A stretch of 41,376 nucleotides of DNA from Herbidospora yilanensis (GTDB lineage Bacteria; Actinomycetota; Actinomycetes; Streptosporangiales; Streptosporangiaceae), in the NCBI RefSeq assembly GCF_001570565.1, contig NZ_BBXE01000053.1, positions 1 to 41,376 of the forward strand, given 5' to 3'. Position 1 is the first letter of the stretch, and every line of letters begins with the position of its first letter. The translations under genes were made by a program, and so were the position numbers. The notes under the pieces are model-generated. The model searched no databases. It was not told the origin of the DNA and saw only the letters and a list, made by a program, of their open reading frames with translations. Positions 34,506-41,376 of this stretch are shown piece by piece.

Positions 34506-35681
34506 ATGACTGCTTCCCTCGAAGCCCTCGACCTCGATCCGGCCTTCGCGCTGCACCGCGGCGGAAAGCTAGAGGTCAGAGCCACCATCCCGGTCCGAAA
34601 CGCCGACGATCTGTCGCTCGCCTACACGCCCGGCGTGGCCCGCGTCTGCTCGGCCATCGCCGATTCGCCCGAGCTCGCCAACGAGTACACCTGGGTCTCC
34701 AACGTGGTGGCCGTGGTCACCGACGGCACCGCCGTGCTGGGGCTCGGCGACATCGGCCCGGCCGGCGCGATGCCCGTCATGGAGGGCAAGTCGCTGCTGT
34801 TCAAGGAGTTCGGCGGGGTCGACTCGGTGCCGATCTGCCTCGACTGCACCGGGGTCGACGAGATCGTCGAGACCGTCGTCCGGATGGCGCCCTCCTTCGG
34901 CGGCATCAACCTGGAGGACATCAGCGCCCCCCGGTGCTTCGAGATCGAGGGCCGGCTCCGCGAGCGCCTGTCGATCCCGGTCTTCCACGACGACCAGCAC
35001 GGCACGGCGATCGTCGCCACCGCCGCGCTGACCAACGCCGCCCGGCTGGTCGGCCGCCCGCTCGGCGAGCTCCGGGCCGTGGTGGCCGGGGCCGGGGCGT
35101 CCGGGGTCGCGGTGACCCGCATGCTGCTCAACGCCGGCATCGGCGACATCGCGGTCTCCGACAGCAAGGGGCTGATCTTCGAGGGCCGGGCCGGGATGAA
35201 CCCCTACAAGGACGCCCTGGCCAGGGAGACCAACAAGGCCGGGCTGACCGGCTCGACCGAGGCGGCCCTCGCCGGGGCCGACGTCTTCATCGGCCTGTCG
35301 GGGGCGACCATCTCCGAGCAGGCCGTCGCGTCGATGACGCAGGACGCCATCGTGTTCGCGCTGTCCAACCCGACGCCCGAGGTCCACCCCCAGGTCGCCG
35401 CCAGGCACGCCGCCGTGGTGGCGACCGGGCGGTCCGACTTCCCCAACCAGATCAACAACGTGCTCGCCTTCCCCGGGGTGTTCCGGGGCGCGCTCGACGT
35501 GCGGGCGACCACCATCACCGAGAACATGAAGATCGCCGCGGCGGCGGCGCTGGCCGGGGTCGTGGGCGACGACGTGCGGGCCGACTACATCATCCCGTCG
35601 CCGTTCGACGACCGGGTCGCCCCGGCCGTGACCCGGGCGGTGGCCGACCAGGCCCGCAAGGACGGCGTCGCGCGCCGGTAG
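34506..35681 (+). CDS. Malic enzyme, bacterial NAD(P)-dependent type
   Basis: 391 residues. It converts malate to pyruvate and CO2 with reduction of NAD(P). The N-terminal RATIPVRNADDLSLAYTPGVA, the metal-site region VPIFHDDQHGTA-like (VFHDDQHGTAIV), the nucleotide-binding GAGASGVAV and the ALSNPTPE motif define the short bacterial form. In Streptomyces the gene in the equivalent place is, from memory, the NADP-linked enzyme; cofactor choice is not provable here. The ATG has AGGGG 9 nt upstream. Confidence 0.93.
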   Translation: MTASLEALDLDPAFALHRGGKLEVRATIPVRNADDLSLAYTPGVARVCSAIADSPELANEYTWVSNVVAVVTDGTAVLGLGDIGPAGAMPVMEGKSLLFKEFGGVDSVPICLDCTGVDEIVETVVRMAPSFGGINLEDISAPRCFEIEGRLRERLSIPVFHDDQHGTAIVATAALTNAARLVGRPLGELRAVVAGAGASGVAVTRMLLNAGIGDIAVSDSKGLIFEGRAGMNPYKDALARETNKAGLTGSTEAALAGADVFIGLSGATISEQAVASMTQDAIVFALSNPTPEVHPQVAARHAAVVATGRSDFPNQINNVLAFPGVFRGALDVRATTITENMKIAAAAALAGVVGDDVRADYIIPSPFDDRVAPAVTRAVADQARKDGVARR

Positions 35682-35693
35682 GACGCCGAAGGA

Positions 35694-35716
35694 CCCGGCC
35701 TCCCCCCGAGGCCGGG
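35694..35716. terminator. Bidirectional terminator between malic enzyme and protease P1
   Basis: CCCGGCCTC/GAGGCCGGG, a 9-bp stem with a C-only loop, in the 51-bp convergent gap. Confidence 0.75.
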
Positions 35717-35732
35717 CCCTTCCGTCCAGGTG

Positions 35733-36872
35733 TCACTTCTTGACGATGCTGCCGGACCAGTTGCCGGCCGCGGCCTTGTAGACGTCGTACGTCTCGCCGT
35801 CGAAGTAGGGCGAGGTGATCTTGTCGATGCGGTCGTTGCCGTTGGAGTCGGCGAAGGCGCTCGTCACGCCGTTGACGTAGCCCAGGCGGCGGGCGTTGCT
35901 GTACTTCAGCAGCCACGGGCCGCCGTCGGCGCCCGGCGTCATCGAGCAGGTGATCGCGATCTGCTCCTCGATCTTGAGCCCCGGGTCGGTGACCTCACGG
36001 TTCGGCTTGCCGTAGCACCACTTCGGGGTGACCCCGGTGAACGCCTTGTTGCCGTCGGGGTGCCGGGCCGCGGGGTAGCCGAAGGCGTAGACCGCGCCGG
36101 CGCCGACCTTCTGGTTGTAGGCCAGGCCCTGGCCGCCGACGTTGTCGCCGAGGCGGCCGGCGTCCTTGATGGTGAGGATCCACCACTTGCCCTTGTCGCG
36201 CCACCTGACGCCGCCGTGGGCCTTGTACTGCTTCTCCGAGACGGACCTGGTCGCCTCGAACTTCACGCCGTTGTAGACCGTGACGAAGGCGTAGTCGCGG
36301 TCGTAGTCCTCGTAGACGTCGAAGTCGTAGTGGGTGAAGCCCTGCTTGGCGACGTACACACCCCACGGGGCCTTGCCCTGGTAGTAGCCCGGAACGAAGA
36401 TCCACTGGTCGAGCATGTGGTCGTTGTCGTCGGTGTCGAAGACGCAGTGCCCCGCGGTGGCGACCAGGTTCTTGTACTTGGCCTGGATCGAGGTCGCCGA
36501 GCACCAGTGGGTCTTGCCGTTCTTGCGGAAGAAGACCTTGCCCAGCGTCTTGGGGATGTTGATGTTCTTCGACTTGCCCGCCTGGCCGCCGGGCCCGGTC
36601 GGGGAGACGGTGCCCGCCTTGCCGTCGGCCGACGGGCCGCCCTTGGAGGAGAGCTTGGCCACCTTGGCGACCGTCTCGGCGTCGGGGCCCCACTGGGTGG
36701 CGGCCCTGAGCGCCTTGTTGTTGCTGCGGAACCAGAAGCCCGCGATGTCGTCGGCGTCTGCCACGGAGACCGTGGGTCCGTCGGCGGGCGAGGCGTTCGC
36801 CGGTAAGGCCACCAGGACGGCGGATCCGGCCAAGCCGGCGGTCACGAGACCGAGGCGTGCGCGCTTGTCCAC
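35733..36872 (-). CDS. Secreted trypsin-like protein P1, catalytic Ser replaced by Asp
   Basis: 379 residues. The signal peptide ends near ALPANAS (about 22-28); a propeptide-like stretch with KGGPSADGKAG follows; the chymotrypsin-fold domain runs from about 105. His142 (TAGHC) and Asp193 (DRDYAFV) of the triad are kept, but GxSGGP reads GADGGPW with Asp316 at the nucleophile. Cys124/143 and Cys286/309 are kept. The C-terminus SPYFDGETYDVYKAAAGNWSGSIVKK is shared by all four copies in spirit. GTG start with GGAGGG 5 nt upstream inside an inverted repeat. It is the leftmost, most diverged member; probably a pseudoprotease or ligand-binding protein. Confidence 0.9.
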   Translation of the reverse strand: MDKRARLGLVTAGLAGSAVLVALPANASPADGPTVSVADADDIAGFWFRSNNKALRAATQWGPDAETVAKVAKLSSKGGPSADGKAGTVSPTGPGGQAGKSKNINIPKTLGKVFFRKNGKTHWCSATSIQAKYKNLVATAGHCVFDTDDNDHMLDQWIFVPGYYQGKAPWGVYVAKQGFTHYDFDVYEDYDRDYAFVTVYNGVKFEATRSVSEKQYKAHGGVRWRDKGKWWILTIKDAGRLGDNVGGQGLAYNQKVGAGAVYAFGYPAARHPDGNKAFTGVTPKWCYGKPNREVTDPGLKIEEQIAITCSMTPGADGGPWLLKYSNARRLGYVNGVTSAFADSNGNDRIDKITSPYFDGETYDVYKAAAGNWSGSIVKK

Positions 36873-36880
36873 GTGAACCC

Positions 36881-36956
36881 TCCTTTTCCTCCCGTTGCGG
36901 ATGTGGATCTCGAAGGTGACTAACCGTGAGACCGAAAACAAACGGGAGGAAAAGGA
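36881..36956 (-). promoter_or_regulatory. Perfect 16-bp inverted repeat over the P1 ribosome binding site
   Basis: TCCTTTTCCTCCCGTT at 36881-36896 is the exact complement of AACGGGAGGAAAAGGA at 36941-36956, with a 44-nt spacer. In the P1 mRNA the 3' arm is the purine-rich stretch at the ribosome binding site. The 5' arm would be present only in transcripts starting upstream of 36956. A possible -10 (TAGTCA, 36917-36922) lies inside the spacer. Confidence 0.7.
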
Positions 36957-36957
36957 A

Positions 36958-36973
36958 TGTGACCTAAGTCACA
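36958..36973. promoter_or_regulatory. Perfect Crp-type palindrome upstream of P1
   Basis: TGTGACCTAAGTCACA matches the actinobacterial Crp/FNR-family consensus TGTGA-N6-TCACA in all ten fixed positions. Its centre is about 55 bp upstream of the transcription start implied by the TAGTCA -10. Confidence 0.65.
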
Positions 36974-37007
36974 CAGGGATGTCGGACAGTCGCCCGCGTC
37001 TGGCTTG

Positions 37008-38093
37008 CTACTTGACTTCCGTCAAGCCGAGCGTGCCGTCCTTCTTGACGATCGAGCCCGACCACAGCGGCGCCGCGGTCTTGTAGACCGCGTAGGTCTC
37101 GCCGTCGAAGTACGGCGAGGTGATCAGGTCGCTGCGGTTGTTGCCGTCGGTGTCGCCGCCGAGGCTGCTGACGCCGTTCAGGTAGCCCTTGCGGGCCGTG
37201 CTGCTGTACTTGATGATCCACGGGCCGCCGGAGGCGCCACCGGTCAGCGAGCAGCGGAGGGCCATGTGCTCCTCGGCCTTCACGCTCTTCTCGGCCACCG
37301 GGTAGATCGGCTTGCCGTAGCACCACTTCATGGTCGAGCCGGTGTAGGTGTAGTCGCCGTCGGGGTGGGCCGCGGTCGGGTAGCCGAACACGAAGACGTT
37401 CTGGCCGACCTTCTGGTTGTACGCGAAGCCCAGCCCGCCGACGTTGTCGCCCAGGCGCCCGACGTCCTTCCACTTGCCCTCCGACCACGTGATGCCGTTG
37501 TAGACGGTCACGAAGGCGAAGTCGCGGTCGATGTCCTCGTAGACGCTGAAGTCGTAGTGGGTGTAGGCCGTCTTGCCGACGTACACGCCCCACGGGGCCT
37601 TGCCCTGGTAGTAGCCCGGGATGAACACCCAGTGGCCGACGACGGAGGCGTTGCTCTCCAGGTCGTAGGCGCAGTGCCCGGCGGTCGCCACGAGGTTCTT
37701 GTACGCCGACTGGATCGACGATGCCGAACACGAGTAGAGGGAGTCGCCGAGGGTGAAGAACACGCGGCCGGCGCTCTTGGGCAGGTTGACGTTCTTGGTC
37801 GTCGTCGTGGGCTTGGCCTCGTCGCCGATGGCCGGCACCACACCCGGCTTGCCGTCGGCGGCCGGACCGCCGGTGGAGACGTGCTTGGGAACCTTGGCGT
37901 GCTCCAGGCCGTAGGGAGCGGCGGCCTTGAGGTTCTTGCCGCCGTCGGCGGTCCAGAACTCCAGGGTGTCGGCGGCCGCGGCGGGCGTCGCCATCTTGGC
38001 GGACTGGCCCACCTTGGGGCCCGCGTGCGCCGGGACCGCTAAGCAGGCGGCCACGAGGCCGGCCACGCCGACGGGAAGGAGGATGCGCTTCAC
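37008..38093 (-). CDS. Secreted trypsin-like serine protease P2, intact triad
   Basis: 361 residues. Signal peptide to about AHA-24, then a propeptide-like region with HVSTGGPAADGKPG. The triad is complete: His140 (TAGHC), Asp191 (DRDFAFV) and Ser288 (GASGGPW). Two Cys pairs are kept, 122/141 and 258/281. The loop between VYNG and GRLGDNVGG is the shortest of the four. It resembles V8-like or trypsin-like secreted peptidases; specificity is unknown. GTG start with AAGGAG 10 nt upstream. It alone lacks a Crp palindrome in its upstream gap but shares the 5'UTR hairpin with P3 and P4. Confidence 0.92.
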   Translation of the reverse strand: MKRILLPVGVAGLVAACLAVPAHAGPKVGQSAKMATPAAAADTLEFWTADGGKNLKAAAPYGLEHAKVPKHVSTGGPAADGKPGVVPAIGDEAKPTTTTKNVNLPKSAGRVFFTLGDSLYSCSASSIQSAYKNLVATAGHCAYDLESNASVVGHWVFIPGYYQGKAPWGVYVGKTAYTHYDFSVYEDIDRDFAFVTVYNGITWSEGKWKDVGRLGDNVGGLGFAYNQKVGQNVFVFGYPTAAHPDGDYTYTGSTMKWCYGKPIYPVAEKSVKAEEHMALRCSLTGGASGGPWIIKYSSTARKGYLNGVSSLGGDTDGNNRSDLITSPYFDGETYAVYKTAAPLWSGSIVKKDGTLGLTEVK

Positions 38094-38119
38094 AGGGGGT
38101 TCGCTCCTTGCGATTGGCG

Positions 38120-38140
38120 TGAGACGCCTCTTGCGTCTCA
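38120..38140 (-). promoter_or_regulatory. 5'UTR hairpin of P2
   Basis: In RNA sense TGAGACGC-AAGAG-GCGTCTCA: a perfect 8-bp stem, 5-nt loop, 26 nt before the GTG. The P3 and P4 versions share the loop-side GC pairs and differ by paired changes in the stem. Confidence 0.65.
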
Positions 38141-38163
38141 TGCGCCAGAAAGGGATAGCCAGA

Positions 38164-38169
38164 AACTTA
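38164..38169 (-). promoter_or_regulatory. Candidate -10 of P2
   Basis: TAAGTT in the shared context CATGTAAGTT, also found before P3; TTTAGC 18 nt upstream could be the -35. It predicts a 5'UTR of about 65 nt containing the hairpin. Confidence 0.45.
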
Positions 38170-38208
38170 CATGACTCTGGCAACTCCGCTAAAGAACACA
38201 TAAAAAGG

Positions 38209-38237
38209 AAAAAGCCCGGCTGGTTGCCGGGCTTTTT
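38209..38237. terminator. Intrinsic terminator of P3
   Basis: GCCCGGC/GCCGGGC stem with loop TGGTT, flanked by A-run and T-run (AAAAA...TTTTT), 15 nt beyond the P3 stop. Strong in the leftward direction and symmetrical. Confidence 0.9.
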
Positions 38238-38251
38238 CGCAAGCGGATCGA

Positions 38252-39463
38252 CTAGGCGATCGAGCCGGTCCACAGGTTCGCGGCGGCCTTGTAGACACCG
38301 TAGGTCTCGCCGTCGAAGTAGGACGAGAGCGAGGTGTCGATGCGCTTGTTGCCGTCGGAGTCGGAGACGCCGATGGTCACGCCGTTCAGGTAACCGAGAC
38401 GGCGGGTGTTCTTGTACTGCGCCAGCCACGCCGAGCCGAGCGAGCCCTGGCCGGTGAAGGACGACTTGACGCCCAGCAGCTCCTCGCCCTTGATGGCCGA
38501 GGCCTTGGCGCCGAAGGTCTTGCCGTAGCTCCACTTGAGGGTCTTGCCGGTGTAGGCCTGGTTGCCGTCCGGGTGCGAGCCGCTCGGGTAGCCGAAGACG
38601 TAGACGCTCTGGCCGACCTTCTGGTTGTACGCGAAGCCCTGGCCGCCGACGTTGTCACCGAGGCGACCGGCGTCCTTGAACTTCCACACGAAGTACTTCG
38701 TGACGTCCTTGCCGTCGACCTTCTCGGTCTTCTTCCGGGTGAGGAAGCCGCCACCGTTCTTCTGGTACGTGTTGTACTCGGCCTCGGTGATCTCGGCGGG
38801 CGCACCCTGGCCGAGCGAGATGCCGTTGTACACGTTGACGAACGCGTAGTTGCGGTCGCCGTCCTCGTACACGTCGAAGTCGTAGTGGGTGAAGGCCTGC
38901 TTGCCGACGTACACGCCCCACGGGGTCTTGCCCTGGTAGTAACCCGGGACGAAGACCCAGTAGTTCATGGTCGCCGCGTTGGTCTCGGTGTCGTAGACAC
39001 AGCTACCGGCGGTGGCGACCAGGTTGCGGTAGGCCGACTGGACCGAGGTGGCGGTGCACCAGCGGGGGTTGACCGCCACGACCCGCCCGGTCGCCGGGTC
39101 CTTCTTGACGCCGTCGGCGAAGAACACCTTGCCCGTGGTCTTGGGCAGGTTGATGTTCTTGGACGTGCTGGTCGTCTTCTTCTCGTCACCGATGGCGGGG
39201 ACGATGCCCGGCTTGGTGTCGGCCGAGGGACCGCCGGTCGAGACGTGCTTCGACGGGACCGTGGTCTCCACGTTGTACGGCTGCGCGTTGATCAGGTTCG
39301 CGGCGCCTTCCGTCAGCCAGAGGGCGGCGATGTTCTTGGCCGCGATGCCCGTCGTCGCCAGCGGGTCGGAGGCGACGTCGCCGGCGGCGTTGGCCGGCTG
39401 GGTGACGAGAGCGGAAGCCAGCAGACCGGCTGCCACACCACCGAGGGCGAGAGTGCGCTTCAT
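38252..39463 (-). CDS. Secreted trypsin-like pseudoprotease P3, triad lost
   Basis: 403 residues. The signal peptide (1 to about 26, QPANA) and first 36 residues equal those of P4. The fold is conserved, but the triad is not: His to Ser154 (TAGSC) and Asp to Asn205 (DRNYAFV), and GxSGGPW has become GSLGSAW (Leu342 four residues before Trp346; a gapped alignment could keep Ser341). The second Cys pair is Ser312 and Ser334; the first, Cys136/155, remains. Relative to P2 it has inserts before Trp-Cys (KKDPATGRVVAVNPR) and between VYNG and GRLGDNVGG. ATG with AGGAG upstream. Likely binding, decoy or structural role. Confidence 0.92.
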   Translation of the reverse strand: MKRTLALGGVAAGLLASALVTQPANAAGDVASDPLATTGIAAKNIAALWLTEGAANLINAQPYNVETTVPSKHVSTGGPSADTKPGIVPAIGDEKKTTSTSKNINLPKTTGKVFFADGVKKDPATGRVVAVNPRWCTATSVQSAYRNLVATAGSCVYDTETNAATMNYWVFVPGYYQGKTPWGVYVGKQAFTHYDFDVYEDGDRNYAFVNVYNGISLGQGAPAEITEAEYNTYQKNGGGFLTRKKTEKVDGKDVTKYFVWKFKDAGRLGDNVGGQGFAYNQKVGQSVYVFGYPSGSHPDGNQAYTGKTLKWSYGKTFGAKASAIKGEELLGVKSSFTGQGSLGSAWLAQYKNTRRLGYLNGVTIGVSDSDGNKRIDTSLSSYFDGETYGVYKAAANLWTGSIA

Positions 39464-39490
39464 AAGGGGGAACTCCTCTTGGTCTGTACG

Positions 39491-39511
39491 TGGGCCGCCT
39501 CTTGCGTCCCA
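39491..39511 (-). promoter_or_regulatory. 5'UTR hairpin of P3
   Basis: RNA-sense TGGGACGC-AAGAG-GCGGCCCA: 8-bp stem with one A-G mismatch and the same AAGAG loop as P2; 27 nt before the ATG. Confidence 0.6.
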
Positions 39512-39535
39512 TGCGTCAGTAAAGGGGCAGTCCGG

Positions 39536-39541
39536 AACTTA
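39536..39541 (-). promoter_or_regulatory. Candidate -10 of P3
   Basis: TAAGTT in the same CATGTAAGTT context as P2. No convincing -35, which suits an activator-dependent promoter. Confidence 0.4.
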
Positions 39542-39668
39542 CATGTCTGTTCGTCACACCGGGTAGCTAATCAGGGGGTGGCCGAAACCCATCCAGAGCC
39601 GTGATCTTTCCGTGATCTGTCGGACGCGAGGTCAGGGGCGATGTCGGGTTGTTATCAACGGGTGATGG

Positions 39669-39684
39669 TGTGACATAAATCACA
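39669..39684. promoter_or_regulatory. Perfect Crp-type palindrome upstream of P3
   Basis: TGTGACATAAATCACA, all ten fixed positions of TGTGA-N6-TCACA, about 127 bp upstream of the candidate P3 -10 and 85 bp from the P4 terminator centre. Confidence 0.6.
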
Positions 39685-39753
39685 TCCTTGCGATGGCACC
39701 GATCCGGGACCTCGTGCGTCCAAGGGGCCCGCGTTGGAACGGGCAAACGAAAA

Positions 39754-39773
39754 GGCCCGGCCGAAGCCGGGCC
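39754..39773 (-). terminator. Intrinsic terminator of P4
   Basis: GGCCCGGC-CGAA-GCCGGGCC, 8-bp stem; TTTTCG follows on the minus strand; 18 nt past the P4 stop. Confidence 0.85.
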
Positions 39774-39791
39774 CTCCGTTTGGGTGGGGCA

Positions 39792-41021
39792 CTACGCGAT
39801 CGAACCGGTCCACAGGTTCGCGGCGGCCTTGTAGACGCCGTAGGTCTCGCCGTCGAAGTACGGGGAGACCGAGGTGTCGTAGCGCTTGTTGCCGTCGGTG
39901 TCGGAGACGCCGATGGTCACGCCGTTCAGGTAACCGAGACGGCGGGTGTTCTTGTACTGCGCGATCCACGCCGAGCCCAGTGCGCCCTCACCGGTGAACG
40001 ACGACTTGACGCCGATGAGCTCCTCGGCCTTGATGGCCGAGGCCTTGGCGGCGAAGGTCTTGCCGTAGCTCCACTTGAGGGTCTTGCCGGTGTAGGCGTG
40101 GTTGCCGTCCGGGTGGGAGCCGCTCGGGTAGCCGAAGACGTAGACGTTCTGGCCGACCTTCTGGTTGTAGGCGAAGCCCTGGCCGCCGACGTTGTCACCG
40201 AGGCGACCGGCGTCCTTGAACTTCCAGATGTAGAAGTGCCACTTGTTGGCGGCGTCCTTCTCGGCGCCGGCCAGCAGGAGGCGCCCGCTGTTCTTCCAGT
40301 AGGTCTTGTACTCGGCCTCGGTGACCTCGACCTTGCTCACGGGAGCGGACTGGTCGGGGCCGTTCAGGGTGAGGCCGTTGTAGACGGTGACGAACGCGTA
40401 GTTGCGGTCGCCGTCCTCGTAGACGTCGTAGTCGTAGTGGGTGAAGGCCTGCTTGCCGACGTACACGCCCCACGGGGTCTTGCCCTGGTAGTAGCCCGGG
40501 ACGAAGACCCAGTAGTTCATGGTCGCGCTGTTGGTCTCCGTGTTGTAGACACAGCTACCCGCGGTGGCGACCAGGTTGCGGTAGTTCGACTGCACCGACG
40601 TGGCGGTGCACCAGTGCGGGTTCTTGGCGACCCACTTGGGGTTCCAGAACGTGCCCTTGTTCTCGAAGCCGTCGGCGAAGAACACCTTGCCCGTGGTCTT
40701 GGGCAGGTTGACGTTCTTCGACGTGCTGGTGGTCTTCTTCTCGTCGCCGATCGCGGGGACGACACCGGGCTTGGTGTCGGCCGTCGGACCGCCGGTCGAG
40801 ACGTGCTTGGAGACGACCTGGGTCTCCACGTCGTACGGGGTGGCGGCGATCAGGTTGGCGGCGTTCTCCGCCAGCCAGAATGCCGCGACGTTCTTGGCCT
40901 GGATGCCCGTCGAGGCCAGCGGGTCACTGGCGACGTCGCCGGCGGCGTTGGCCGGCTGGGTGACGAGGGCGGAGGCCAGCAGGCCGGCCGCCACGCCACC
41001 GAGGGCGAGGGTGCGCTTCAT
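39792..41021 (-). CDS. Secreted trypsin-like pseudoprotease P4, triad lost
   Basis: 409 residues, the closest paralog of P3. Triad changes are His to Ser156, Asp to Asn207, and the nucleophile region reads GALGSAW (Ala347, Leu348), with no Ser at either alignment of the active-site position. The second Cys pair is Ser318 and Ser340; Cys138/157 remain. The insert before Trp-Cys (FENKGTFWNPKWVAKNPH) and the insert after VYNG differ strongly from P3, while flanking core segments are nearly identical. Signal peptide as in P3. The ATG has AAGGAG 8 nt upstream. Likely secreted, stable and non-proteolytic. Confidence 0.92.
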   Translation of the reverse strand: MKRTLALGGVAAGLLASALVTQPANAAGDVASDPLASTGIQAKNVAAFWLAENAANLIAATPYDVETQVVSKHVSTGGPTADTKPGVVPAIGDEKKTTSTSKNVNLPKTTGKVFFADGFENKGTFWNPKWVAKNPHWCTATSVQSNYRNLVATAGSCVYNTETNSATMNYWVFVPGYYQGKTPWGVYVGKQAFTHYDYDVYEDGDRNYAFVTVYNGLTLNGPDQSAPVSKVEVTEAEYKTYWKNSGRLLLAGAEKDAANKWHFYIWKFKDAGRLGDNVGGQGFAYNQKVGQNVYVFGYPSGSHPDGNHAYTGKTLKWSYGKTFAAKASAIKAEELIGVKSSFTGEGALGSAWIAQYKNTRRLGYLNGVTIGVSDTDGNKRYDTSVSPYFDGETYGVYKAAANLWTGSIA

Positions 41022-41044
41022 GAGGGAACTCCTTGGTCTGTACG

Positions 41045-41064
41045 TGGGCCGCGCTTGCGTCCCA
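41045..41064 (-). promoter_or_regulatory. 5'UTR hairpin of P4
   Basis: RNA-sense TGGGACGC-AAGC-GCGGCCCA: same stem as P3 with a 4-nt loop, 23 nt before the ATG. Confidence 0.6.
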
Positions 41065-41286
41065 TACGTCAGGAAAGGGATGTTCCGGAGGTTACTCCCG
41101 CGATCTTTCGCGGCTGAAGTGACGGAAAGAGCCCTTCGGGCTCCGCGATGCTCGTGTTATCTGAGCGACTCACAGTTTTGTTATGAGTCAATAAATGTCA
41201 TGGGGCAAAAGAGCCTGCCCGAAGGGGTTCCGGCCCTTGCGAGTGTTGTTAACAAAAGGTGAAGAAGTCGGACAGATATCCATAGA

Positions 41287-41302
41287 TGTGACGCGAATCA
41301 CA
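41287..41302. promoter_or_regulatory. Perfect Crp-type palindrome upstream of P4
   Basis: TGTGACGCGAATCACA, all ten fixed positions of TGTGA-N6-TCACA, about 193 bp upstream of the candidate P4 -10. Confidence 0.6.
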
Positions 41303-41353
41303 CCTGATCGAGGGAACCGTTTCGGGTGATCAAGAAACGAGTCCGAGAACGGG

Positions 41354-41376
41354 AAAAGGCCCGGTCGTGAACGACC
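41354..41376 (-). terminator. Truncated terminator-like hairpin at window edge
   Basis: AAAAGGCCC then GGTCG-TGAA-CGACC, cut by the window end. The layout matches the P4 terminator (AAAAGGCCC start) and implies a leftward gene ending just beyond the edge. Confidence 0.5.

What the first reader, a model, noticed from the sequence alone, without database searches (positions are those of the whole stretch)
35733..41021. Tandem array of one trypsin-like protease and three probable pseudoproteases
Four co-directional genes encode secreted proteins with the same core (GYYQGKxPWGVYV, GRLGDNVGG, YFDGETY). P2 has His140-Asp191-Ser288. P1 keeps His and Asp but has Asp316 at the Ser. P3 and P4 have His to Ser and Asp to Asn, and a remodelled GxSGGP loop (GSLGSAW, GALGSAW). 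The reading frames are intact, signal peptides and ribosome binding sites are kept, and each copy has its own promoter or terminator signals, so these are not decaying pseudogenes. Loss of catalysis with retention of expression suggests new roles: decoys for protease inhibitors, regulators or stabilisers of P2, substrate binding, or surface structure. I know of no described system of this form.
Basis: partly seen in the sequence, partly recalled or inferred. Interest (0 to 1): 0.85.

Follow-up and report, generated by a model that had tools for sequence, protein, structure and literature searches.

The report
Secreted protease array with dead copies
A soil bacterium carries a row of secreted protease genes in which several copies have lost the residues needed to cut proteins but are kept intact by selection and specially regulated, so they probably now bind rather than cut.

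Summary
Four co-directional genes encode secreted trypsin-fold proteins. P2 keeps His140/Asp191/Ser288; P1 has Asp at the Ser; P3 and P4 have Ser, Asn and Leu at the three sites. The window is one contig of a Herbidospora-like genome and cuts the array; six sister species carry 10-11 copies, three or four with all triad residues. Both flanks are conserved in 13 of 15 sister loci. Of 422 family proteins (a biased sample), 199 keep Ser, 127 have Asp, 75 Leu/Ile. Dead groups show dN/dS 0.14-0.37 against 0.14-0.27 for intact ones, joint loss of one disulfide in the Leu/Ile class, and class-fixed residues around the old cleft. Seven of the genome's 17 perfect CRP-type sites precede copies of this family, none a copy that keeps Ser; P2, P3, P4 share a conserved leader hairpin. 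In other genera an SSI-type inhibitor gene lies beside an intact copy. Best reading: retained pseudoproteases whose cleft now binds a ligand within an extracellular protease-inhibitor module; binding is inferred. Precedents exist (UmbA, CspA/CspC, MamO): a new variant of a known kind. Independent contrasts did not tie Ser loss to the CRP site.

The parts
35733..36872 (-). P1, secreted trypsin-fold protein, triad His-Asp-Asp (Ser to Asp at residue 316)
37008..38093 (-). P2, secreted trypsin-like protease with intact His140-Asp191-Ser288
   Evidence: (passes Pfam Trypsin and Trypsin_2 cut-offs)
38252..39463 (-). P3, secreted pseudoprotease Ser-Asn-Leu, loop GSLGSAW
39792..41021 (-). P4, secreted pseudoprotease Ser-Asn-Leu, loop GALGSAW
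38089..38171 (-). conserved leader with hairpin in front of P2
39460..39542 (-). conserved leader with hairpin in front of P3
41013..41095 (-). conserved leader with hairpin in front of P4
36958..36973 (.). perfect CRP-type palindrome TGTGAN6TCACA upstream of P1
39669..39684 (.). perfect CRP-type palindrome upstream of P3
41287..41302 (.). perfect CRP-type palindrome upstream of P4
38208..38238 (-). terminator-like hairpin between P3 and P2
39754..39768 (-). weak terminator-like hairpin after P4
34350..35681 (+). malic enzyme gene, the conserved flank of the array (start of the frame not refined)
   Evidence: Pfam PF00390 and PF03949; synteny

Best explanation
This is part of an old, tandemly expanded family of secreted trypsin-fold (S1-type, Anisep/AL20-like) proteins of Streptosporangiaceae. 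Shown: some copies keep the full triad, while others lost it by at least two routes (Ser to Asp, as in P1; Ser to Leu/Ile with later loss of His and Asp, as in P3/P4), and the dead groups tested are kept by purifying selection. Shown: in this genome seven of eight copies with the Ser replaced (one of the seven is cut before the Ser) have a perfect CRP-type site upstream, and P2, P3, P4 share a conserved leader hairpin. Inferred: after secretion the dead copies fold like the protease and use the old, remodelled substrate cleft to hold a peptide strand or protein without cutting it (as UmbA does with UmbB), and so act next to the active copies as binding, shielding or titrating proteins in an extracellular proteolysis module. 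The ligand is unknown.
For: Triad survey: 422 non-redundant proteins, 199 Ser, 127 Asp, 75 Leu/Ile, 16 other, 5 not readable. Selection: NG86 dN/dS means P1 0.14, P3 0.29, P4 0.37, two further Leu groups 0.19 and 0.34, against 0.26, 0.27 and 0.14 for the intact P2, A and B. The Cys pair beside the Ser loop is absent from all 75 Leu/Ile proteins, present in 173 of 199 Ser and 104 of 127 Asp proteins; in these classes it is kept or lost as a pair. 7 of 21 class-specific non-signal positions of the Leu/Ile class fall in 21 of 377 residues of the Ser loop and the adjoining strand, 1.2 expected (windows chosen after seeing the list). Asp class: His and Asp kept in 125 of 127 over tree length 21.3, against 21 of 75 over 5.9 in the Leu/Ile class. 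Fold. Regulation: 7 of 17 perfect CRP-type sites of the genome lie upstream of family copies, none of them one of the six classified copies that keep Ser. Leader hairpin: 97.1% of cells paired, 6 of 11 pairs with double-sided change.
Against: No binding partner, expression or activity datum. No conserved non-family partner gene was seen in the four other arrays inspected apart from the SSI-type gene, and that gene is missing from Herbidospora arrays. Phylogenetically independent pairs give no support for a link between Ser loss and the CRP site (same way 0.6, opposite 2.0 of 9 pairs) or the leader (0.7 and 1.1 of 9), and both signals also precede some copies that keep Ser, so regulation marks a lineage rather than dead copies as such. 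The Asp-class copy on C21 has neither signal. Singly folded leaders are no more stable than shuffles for P4 and the C15 copy, and only mildly for P3. P3/P4 dN/dS is at the upper end; P4 orthology is uncertain.
Confidence: 0.5

Rival explanations
1. Decoys for a canonical protease inhibitor: dead copies bind the SSI-type inhibitor and free the active paralogues.
For: An SSI-type gene lies near a family gene in 45 of 105 loci examined (37 scored divergent; two of them checked by Pfam PF00720). The Asp class keeps His and Asp in 125 of 127 and the disulfide in 104 of 127, so its inhibitor-facing surface could be intact.
Against: 0 of 7 Herbidospora arrays hold the SSI gene (one copy elsewhere in each genome). 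In the Leu/Ile class the Ser loop has an extra residue, lost its disulfide and changed the neighbouring strand, which a canonical inhibitor would contact (general knowledge of such inhibitors).
Confidence: 0.2
2. Regulators or partners of an active paralogue, as CspA and CspC are proposed to be for CspB.
For: All 16 arrays examined hold at least two intact copies, and 15 of 16 hold at least one Ser-lost copy; P2, P3 and P4 share the leader.
Against: No Nonomuraea protein falls in the P2 clade although Nonomuraea loci hold many Asp-class copies; CRP-type sites precede P1, P3, P4 but not P2; no complex has been shown.
Confidence: 0.15
3. Structural or adhesive surface proteins of hyphae or spores that use the fold as a scaffold, with the variable loop as the recognition part.
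For: The loop between the Asp strand and GRLGDNVGG differs most in length among P1-P4; long forms with about 140 extra residues there exist on C15 and C25.
Against: No anchor, lectin or repeat was found by Pfam in P1-P4.
Confidence: 0.08
4. Still proteolytic through other residues.
For: P1 keeps His and Asp; a loop Ser (P3 residue 344) is invariant in the Leu/Ile class.
Against: P3/P4 have no His at the site; S344 is two residues past the nucleophile position and a Ser is already there in the GSSGSAW class.
Confidence: 0.04
5. Young decaying duplicates under relaxed selection.
For: His and Asp decay in the Leu/Ile class.
Against: dN/dS well below 1, full-length open frames in seven species, class-fixed residues, persistence across genera.
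Confidence: 0.02

Closest known systems
UmbA proteins of Streptomyces umbrella toxin particles (PMC11062931, abstract and passages read)
   Same: Secreted actinobacterial trypsin-fold proteins without a complete triad; the trypsin-like domain binds UmbB, modelled with the UmbB N-terminus in its cleft, and the two domains assayed showed no activity
   Different: UmbA has C-terminal lectin domains and UmbB/UmbC partners; P1-P4 have no lectin; a profile of this family found no Umb chain in the PDB copy (presence of Umb entries there not tested); ALF repeats not found in this genome, but the control was silent
CspB with pseudoproteases CspA and CspC of Clostridioides difficile (PMC6464247, passages read)
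   Same: One locus with an active protease and two dead paralogues with proposed regulatory roles
   Different: Subtilisin-like fold, spore proteins, one transcription unit
MamO/MamE of magnetotactic bacteria (PMC4794232, passages read)
   Same: Trypsin-like protein that lost catalysis and gained a binding role; pseudoproteases evolved repeatedly
   Different: HtrA-type; not a secreted tandem array
Anisep (3wy8) and AL20 (3cp7) serine proteases
   Same: Nearest solved structures by sequence and fold
   Different: Solved as proteases (titles); a pseudoprotease array with them is not known to me
Scabies mite inactivated protease paralogues, insect serine protease homologues, azurocidin (recalled)
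   Same: Retained inactivated S1 proteases
   Different: Animal proteins

Membership tests
S1 / Trypsin-like peptidase fold | chymotrypsin-like double barrel | tested here: met
   P3: AlphaFold and Foldseek. P2: confident model, not run through Foldseek, and sequence match to 3wy8/3cp7. P1, P4 by alignment only
S1 / Trypsin-like peptidase | His-Asp-Ser triad in P2 | tested here: met
S1 / Trypsin-like peptidase | His-Asp-Ser triad in P1, P3, P4 | tested here: not met
   they are filed as pseudoproteases
Retained pseudoprotease | purifying selection on a copy without the triad | tested here: met
Retained pseudoprotease | absence of proteolytic activity | not testable with these tools
   needs purified protein
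UmbA | trypsin-like domain followed by lectin domain | tested here: not met
   proteins end after the protease domain; Pfam finds no lectin
UmbA | UmbB and UmbC partners in the genome | tested here: inconclusive
   PF03752 silent in this genome and in all controls; UmbB not tested
Csp-type protease/pseudoprotease locus | subtilisin-like fold | tested here: not met
   trypsin-like fold

The most novel reading that the evidence does not exclude
Streptosporangiaceae run a cAMP-CRP controlled set of secreted trypsin-fold pseudoproteases that was built at least twice from proteases: a Ser-to-Asp class in which the new His-Asp-Asp constellation is itself a conserved ligand or metal site, and a Leu/Ile class with a rebuilt cleft; together with intact paralogues, an SSI-type inhibitor and a family-specific leader RNA they form an extracellular control system in which about half of the family members bind rather than cut.
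Probability: 0.25. Interest if true: 0.82.

Novelty: new variant of a known kind. Interest (0 to 1): 0.64.

Why it matters
The bacterial pseudoproteases known to me are few. Here is a bacterial family with hundreds of members in which about half of those sampled lack the nucleophile (218 of 417 readable), steps of the loss (Ser first, then His or Asp in either order; even Asp/Asn differing between sister species) are visible side by side, intact paralogues remain as controls, and upstream signals hint at when the proteins are made. It makes the question of what a protease fold does after catalysis is lost testable in cultivable soil bacteria.

Tried and rejected
Rfam: no match overlaps the leaders; seven weak hits below gathering elsewhere in 35000-41376 judged chance. 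NCBIfam: nothing over cut-off for P1-P4. UmbA membership: no lectin, no PDB profile hit, ALF search silent without a positive control. A conserved non-family partner gene inside arrays: gene-like frames in four other arrays gave no partner shared by all; the SSI-type gene was followed up. The box ATG as a coding leader: by eye the frame to the real start differs among copies, so not pursued. Expression evidence in Planobispora rosea proteomics: 'protease', 'peptidase' and 'secreted' do not occur in the main text. A causal link of Ser loss with CRP site or leader: tested by independent pairs and not supported; the raw contrast (119 of 222 Ser-lost or unread against 23 of 197 Ser-kept) is therefore reported as a lineage pattern only; so is the contrast within this genome (7 of 8 against 0 of 6). 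Dropped rows: 498 family hits were reduced to 422 (duplicates, under 250 residues); 5 of 422 had no readable Ser site and were left out of the trees (417 rows); 419 of 422 had 400 bases upstream for the CRP count; the copy on C32 (weak match) was not classified. The set is biased towards relatives of P1-P4: the loci were found with their profile, and 75 loci of 218 candidate relatives were kept. The words 'internal stops 0' printed by the script are a fixed text, not a count; open frames rest.

Literature: no description of this family was seen in the listings (open-access PMC only); one search served Umb, SSI, Crp. Seen of papers: passages for PMC11062931 (plus abstract and outline), PMC6464247, PMC4794232, PMC13274773, one passage for PMC4514598; all others as search listing only.
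Full report
What is there. The window is contig C53 of a 7.85 Mb genome. The best matches to its P1 are in six Herbidospora species (93-97% identity), so it is taken as Herbidospora or a very near relative. Four minus-strand genes at 35733-41021 encode secreted proteins: each begins with a Sec-type signal (read by eye), then a pro-region, then a trypsin-like domain. P2 passes the Pfam cut-offs for Trypsin and Trypsin_2; P1 (22.7 bits of 27.6 for Trypsin_2) and P3/P4 (15.6, 13.8) do not. P2 matches the solved proteases 3wy8 and 3cp7. AlphaFold models are confident for P3 (pLDDT 92.1) and P2 (88.6), and P3 is closest to 3wy8 by Foldseek (E 1.4e-14).

The array is larger than the window. Contig C53 ends 355 bases beyond P4. 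Contig C23 begins with a cut copy and four more in the same direction. In the six sister species the run is contiguous, with 11 copies in four and 10 in two: P1 (His-Asp-Asp), P2 (intact), five or six Leu-class copies, one GSSGSAW copy, then two intact copies A and B. That C53 and C23 are adjacent is inferred from these. Outside the array this genome has further copies on C15, C25, C21, C18 (two) and a weak match on C32. Among 15 sister loci of the array, both the malic enzyme flank and at least one gene of the other flank (oxidoreductase, PadR, DUF4097, kgd) were seen in 13, one flank in 1, none in 1 (Pfam names). Of 16 arrays examined, 15 hold a copy with replaced Ser and all hold at least two intact copies; the exception has five intact copies. 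In the search of 60 relatives, 21 have a match at E 1e-15 or better.

How the triad was lost. Of 422 non-redundant family proteins, 199 keep Ser, 127 have Asp, 75 Leu or Ile, 16 other residues, and 5 could not be read. On a FastTree of 417 with the triad columns removed, at least 11 changes between Ser and non-Ser are needed, 10 for His, 10 for Asp. On an IQ-TREE quick tree of 111 rows the Leu/Ile class needs one change, Asp against the rest eight, and Ser against non-Ser nine; it contains only 6 Leu/Ile rows, and the clade support is modest (70; 20 in the FastTree, where one Ile copy of this genome stands outside). The Asp class is mostly one clade, with a few Ser, Asn and Ala members inside, plus the P1 clade, whose joining is weakly supported (37). 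In the Leu/Ile class the commonest state outside Herbidospora is His-Asp-Leu (18 of 36, counted), which suggests that Ser was lost first. In the GSSGSAW gene, four of seven Herbidospora genomes have Asn and three Asp at the Asp site. In the Asp class His and Asp are kept in 125 of 127 proteins over a tree length of 21.3, with one His and one Asp change; in the Leu/Ile class in 21 of 75 over 5.9, with eight and five changes. So Ser-to-Asp leaves a constellation that is still constrained, whereas Ser-to-Leu frees the other two sites.

Selection. In nine orthologue groups over seven Herbidospora genomes (one group has six), mean pairwise NG86 dN/dS is 0.14 for P1, 0.29 for P3, 0.37 for P4, 0.19 and 0.34 for two other Leu-class groups, 0.20 for the GSSGSAW group, and 0.26, 0.27 and 0.14 for the intact P2, A and B. 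Each member is a full-length open frame. P4 orthology is uncertain because copy number varies. The disulfide next to the Ser loop is lost as a pair in all 75 Leu/Ile proteins. Of 21 class-specific positions of that class outside the signal peptide, 7 fall in the Ser loop and the adjoining strand (21 of 377 residues; expected 1.2; hypergeometric 4e-5, 2.5e-4 without the Ser site; windows chosen after the list was seen). This is remodelling, not random decay.

Regulation. P2, P3 and P4 share a leader of about 83 bases that reaches the ribosome binding site and start codon. A model built from 79 such leaders finds 7 matches in this genome, one of them weak (E 0.028), all in front of family genes, including the unlinked C15 and C25 copies. 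Among 148 genomes of the class, 6 have matches (stricter filters): 6 of 11 of the same taxonomic family, this genome included, and 0 of 137 outside it (122 of the genomes without a match are not listed one by one). The 27 matches in four of the other genomes were checked and all 27 precede family genes, some of them cut by contig ends. The hairpin has 97.1% of cells paired against 26-56% for slid versions, and 6 of 11 pairs change on both sides. Singly folded, P2's leader is far more stable than shuffles (z -4.1), P3's mildly (-1.9), those of P4 and C15 not. In this genome P1, A and B have no match.

The window holds three perfect TGTGAN6TCACA palindromes (expected 0.01). They lie upstream of P1, P3 and P4. 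The whole genome has 17; 7 lie within 300 bases upstream of family genes: P1, P3, P4, two copies on C23, C15 and C25 (coordinates compared by hand). Six of these seven have the Ser replaced; the seventh has Asn at the Asp site and is cut before the Ser by the contig end. None lies in front of the six classified copies that keep Ser (P2, the GSSGSAW copy, A, B, two on C18), and the Asp-class copy on C21 has none. Across 419 copies with enough upstream sequence, a perfect site is present in 55 of 74 Leu/Ile, 54 of 127 Asp, 10 of 21 other or unread, 15 of 30 GSSGS and 8 of 167 standard Ser copies. Where site and leader are both present, the gap is 214-228 bases in 94 of 117. The genome has four Crp/Fnr-type DNA-binding domains. 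That the motif is the CRP motif is established knowledge of CRP-family regulators; binding was not shown. Independent contrasts do not support a direct link of Ser loss with the site (same way 0.6, opposite 2.0 of 9 pairs) or with the leader (0.7 and 1.1): site and leader mark the lineage in which most copies died, and they also precede some intact members.

Inhibitor gene. In other genera an SSI-type inhibitor gene sits in the array: 45 hits in 45 of 105 loci examined (some loci repeat a genome). The nearest family gene has a Ser loop in 42, Thr in 1, unread in 2; 37 were scored divergent, 8 not (two hits checked by Pfam). No Herbidospora array has it; each of the seven Herbidospora genomes has one SSI gene elsewhere.

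Interpretation. Shown: retained, secreted, trypsin-fold proteins without a triad, beside intact paralogues, with conserved upstream signals. Inferred: they bind without cutting. UmbA is the best analogue of the mechanism: its trypsin-like domain binds UmbB, with the UmbB N-terminus modelled in the cleft and the contact supported by substitutions; no S. coelicolor UmbA has the full triad, and no activity was detected for the two tested domains (PMC11062931, passages). CspA and CspC with CspB are the best analogue of a mixed locus (PMC6464247, passages), and MamO of a trypsin-like protein repurposed for binding (PMC4794232, passages). The family is not filed as UmbA: no lectin domain, no profile hit. 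Decoy and regulator roles stay open and are listed as rivals.

Verdict. The finding is real and its main claim, that these are not decaying pseudogenes, is strengthened. The count, the 'one protease' reading and the claim of no precedent need correction. Novel as a family and in scale as far as the searches show; a new variant of a known kind.

Noticed in passing
window:38089-38171, 39460-39542, 41013-41095 (-); models: A leader of about 83 bases with a covarying hairpin, found only in front of this gene family in the matches checked and without an overlapping Rfam match in the window; a candidate new cis-regulatory RNA.
   Followed up: partly
window:36958-36973, 39669-39684, 41287-41302; genome sites: Perfect CRP-type palindromes; 7 of the genome's 17 lie in front of this family.
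   Followed up: partly
L136:10295-11053, L068:5657-6160 and 43 other loci: SSI-type protease inhibitor gene, mostly divergent from an intact protease, inside the syntenic array in many genera, missing from Herbidospora arrays.
   Followed up: partly
L140:4208-5791, L141:4346-6010: Unlinked long paralogues (528 and 555 aa open frames) with about 140 extra residues at the variable loop, also Ser-lost, with leader and CRP-type site.
   Followed up: partly
L124:2810-4012 and orthologues: GSSGSAW copy in which the catalytic Asp is Asn in four of seven Herbidospora genomes and Asp in three: a loss step caught within a genus.
   Followed up: partly
upstream regions printed: Between CRP-type site and leader further blocks seem to recur across genera (for example TGATCTGCGGAAAC, TCACGGAANGGTCACG, CAAGATC; by eye), suggesting more regulators.
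   Followed up: no
L136:18170-19528, L137:17723-19159, L134:5123-6493, L135:18865-19974: A long regulator-like gene next to the array in four other genera; named from reading only, not searched for in Herbidospora.
   Followed up: no
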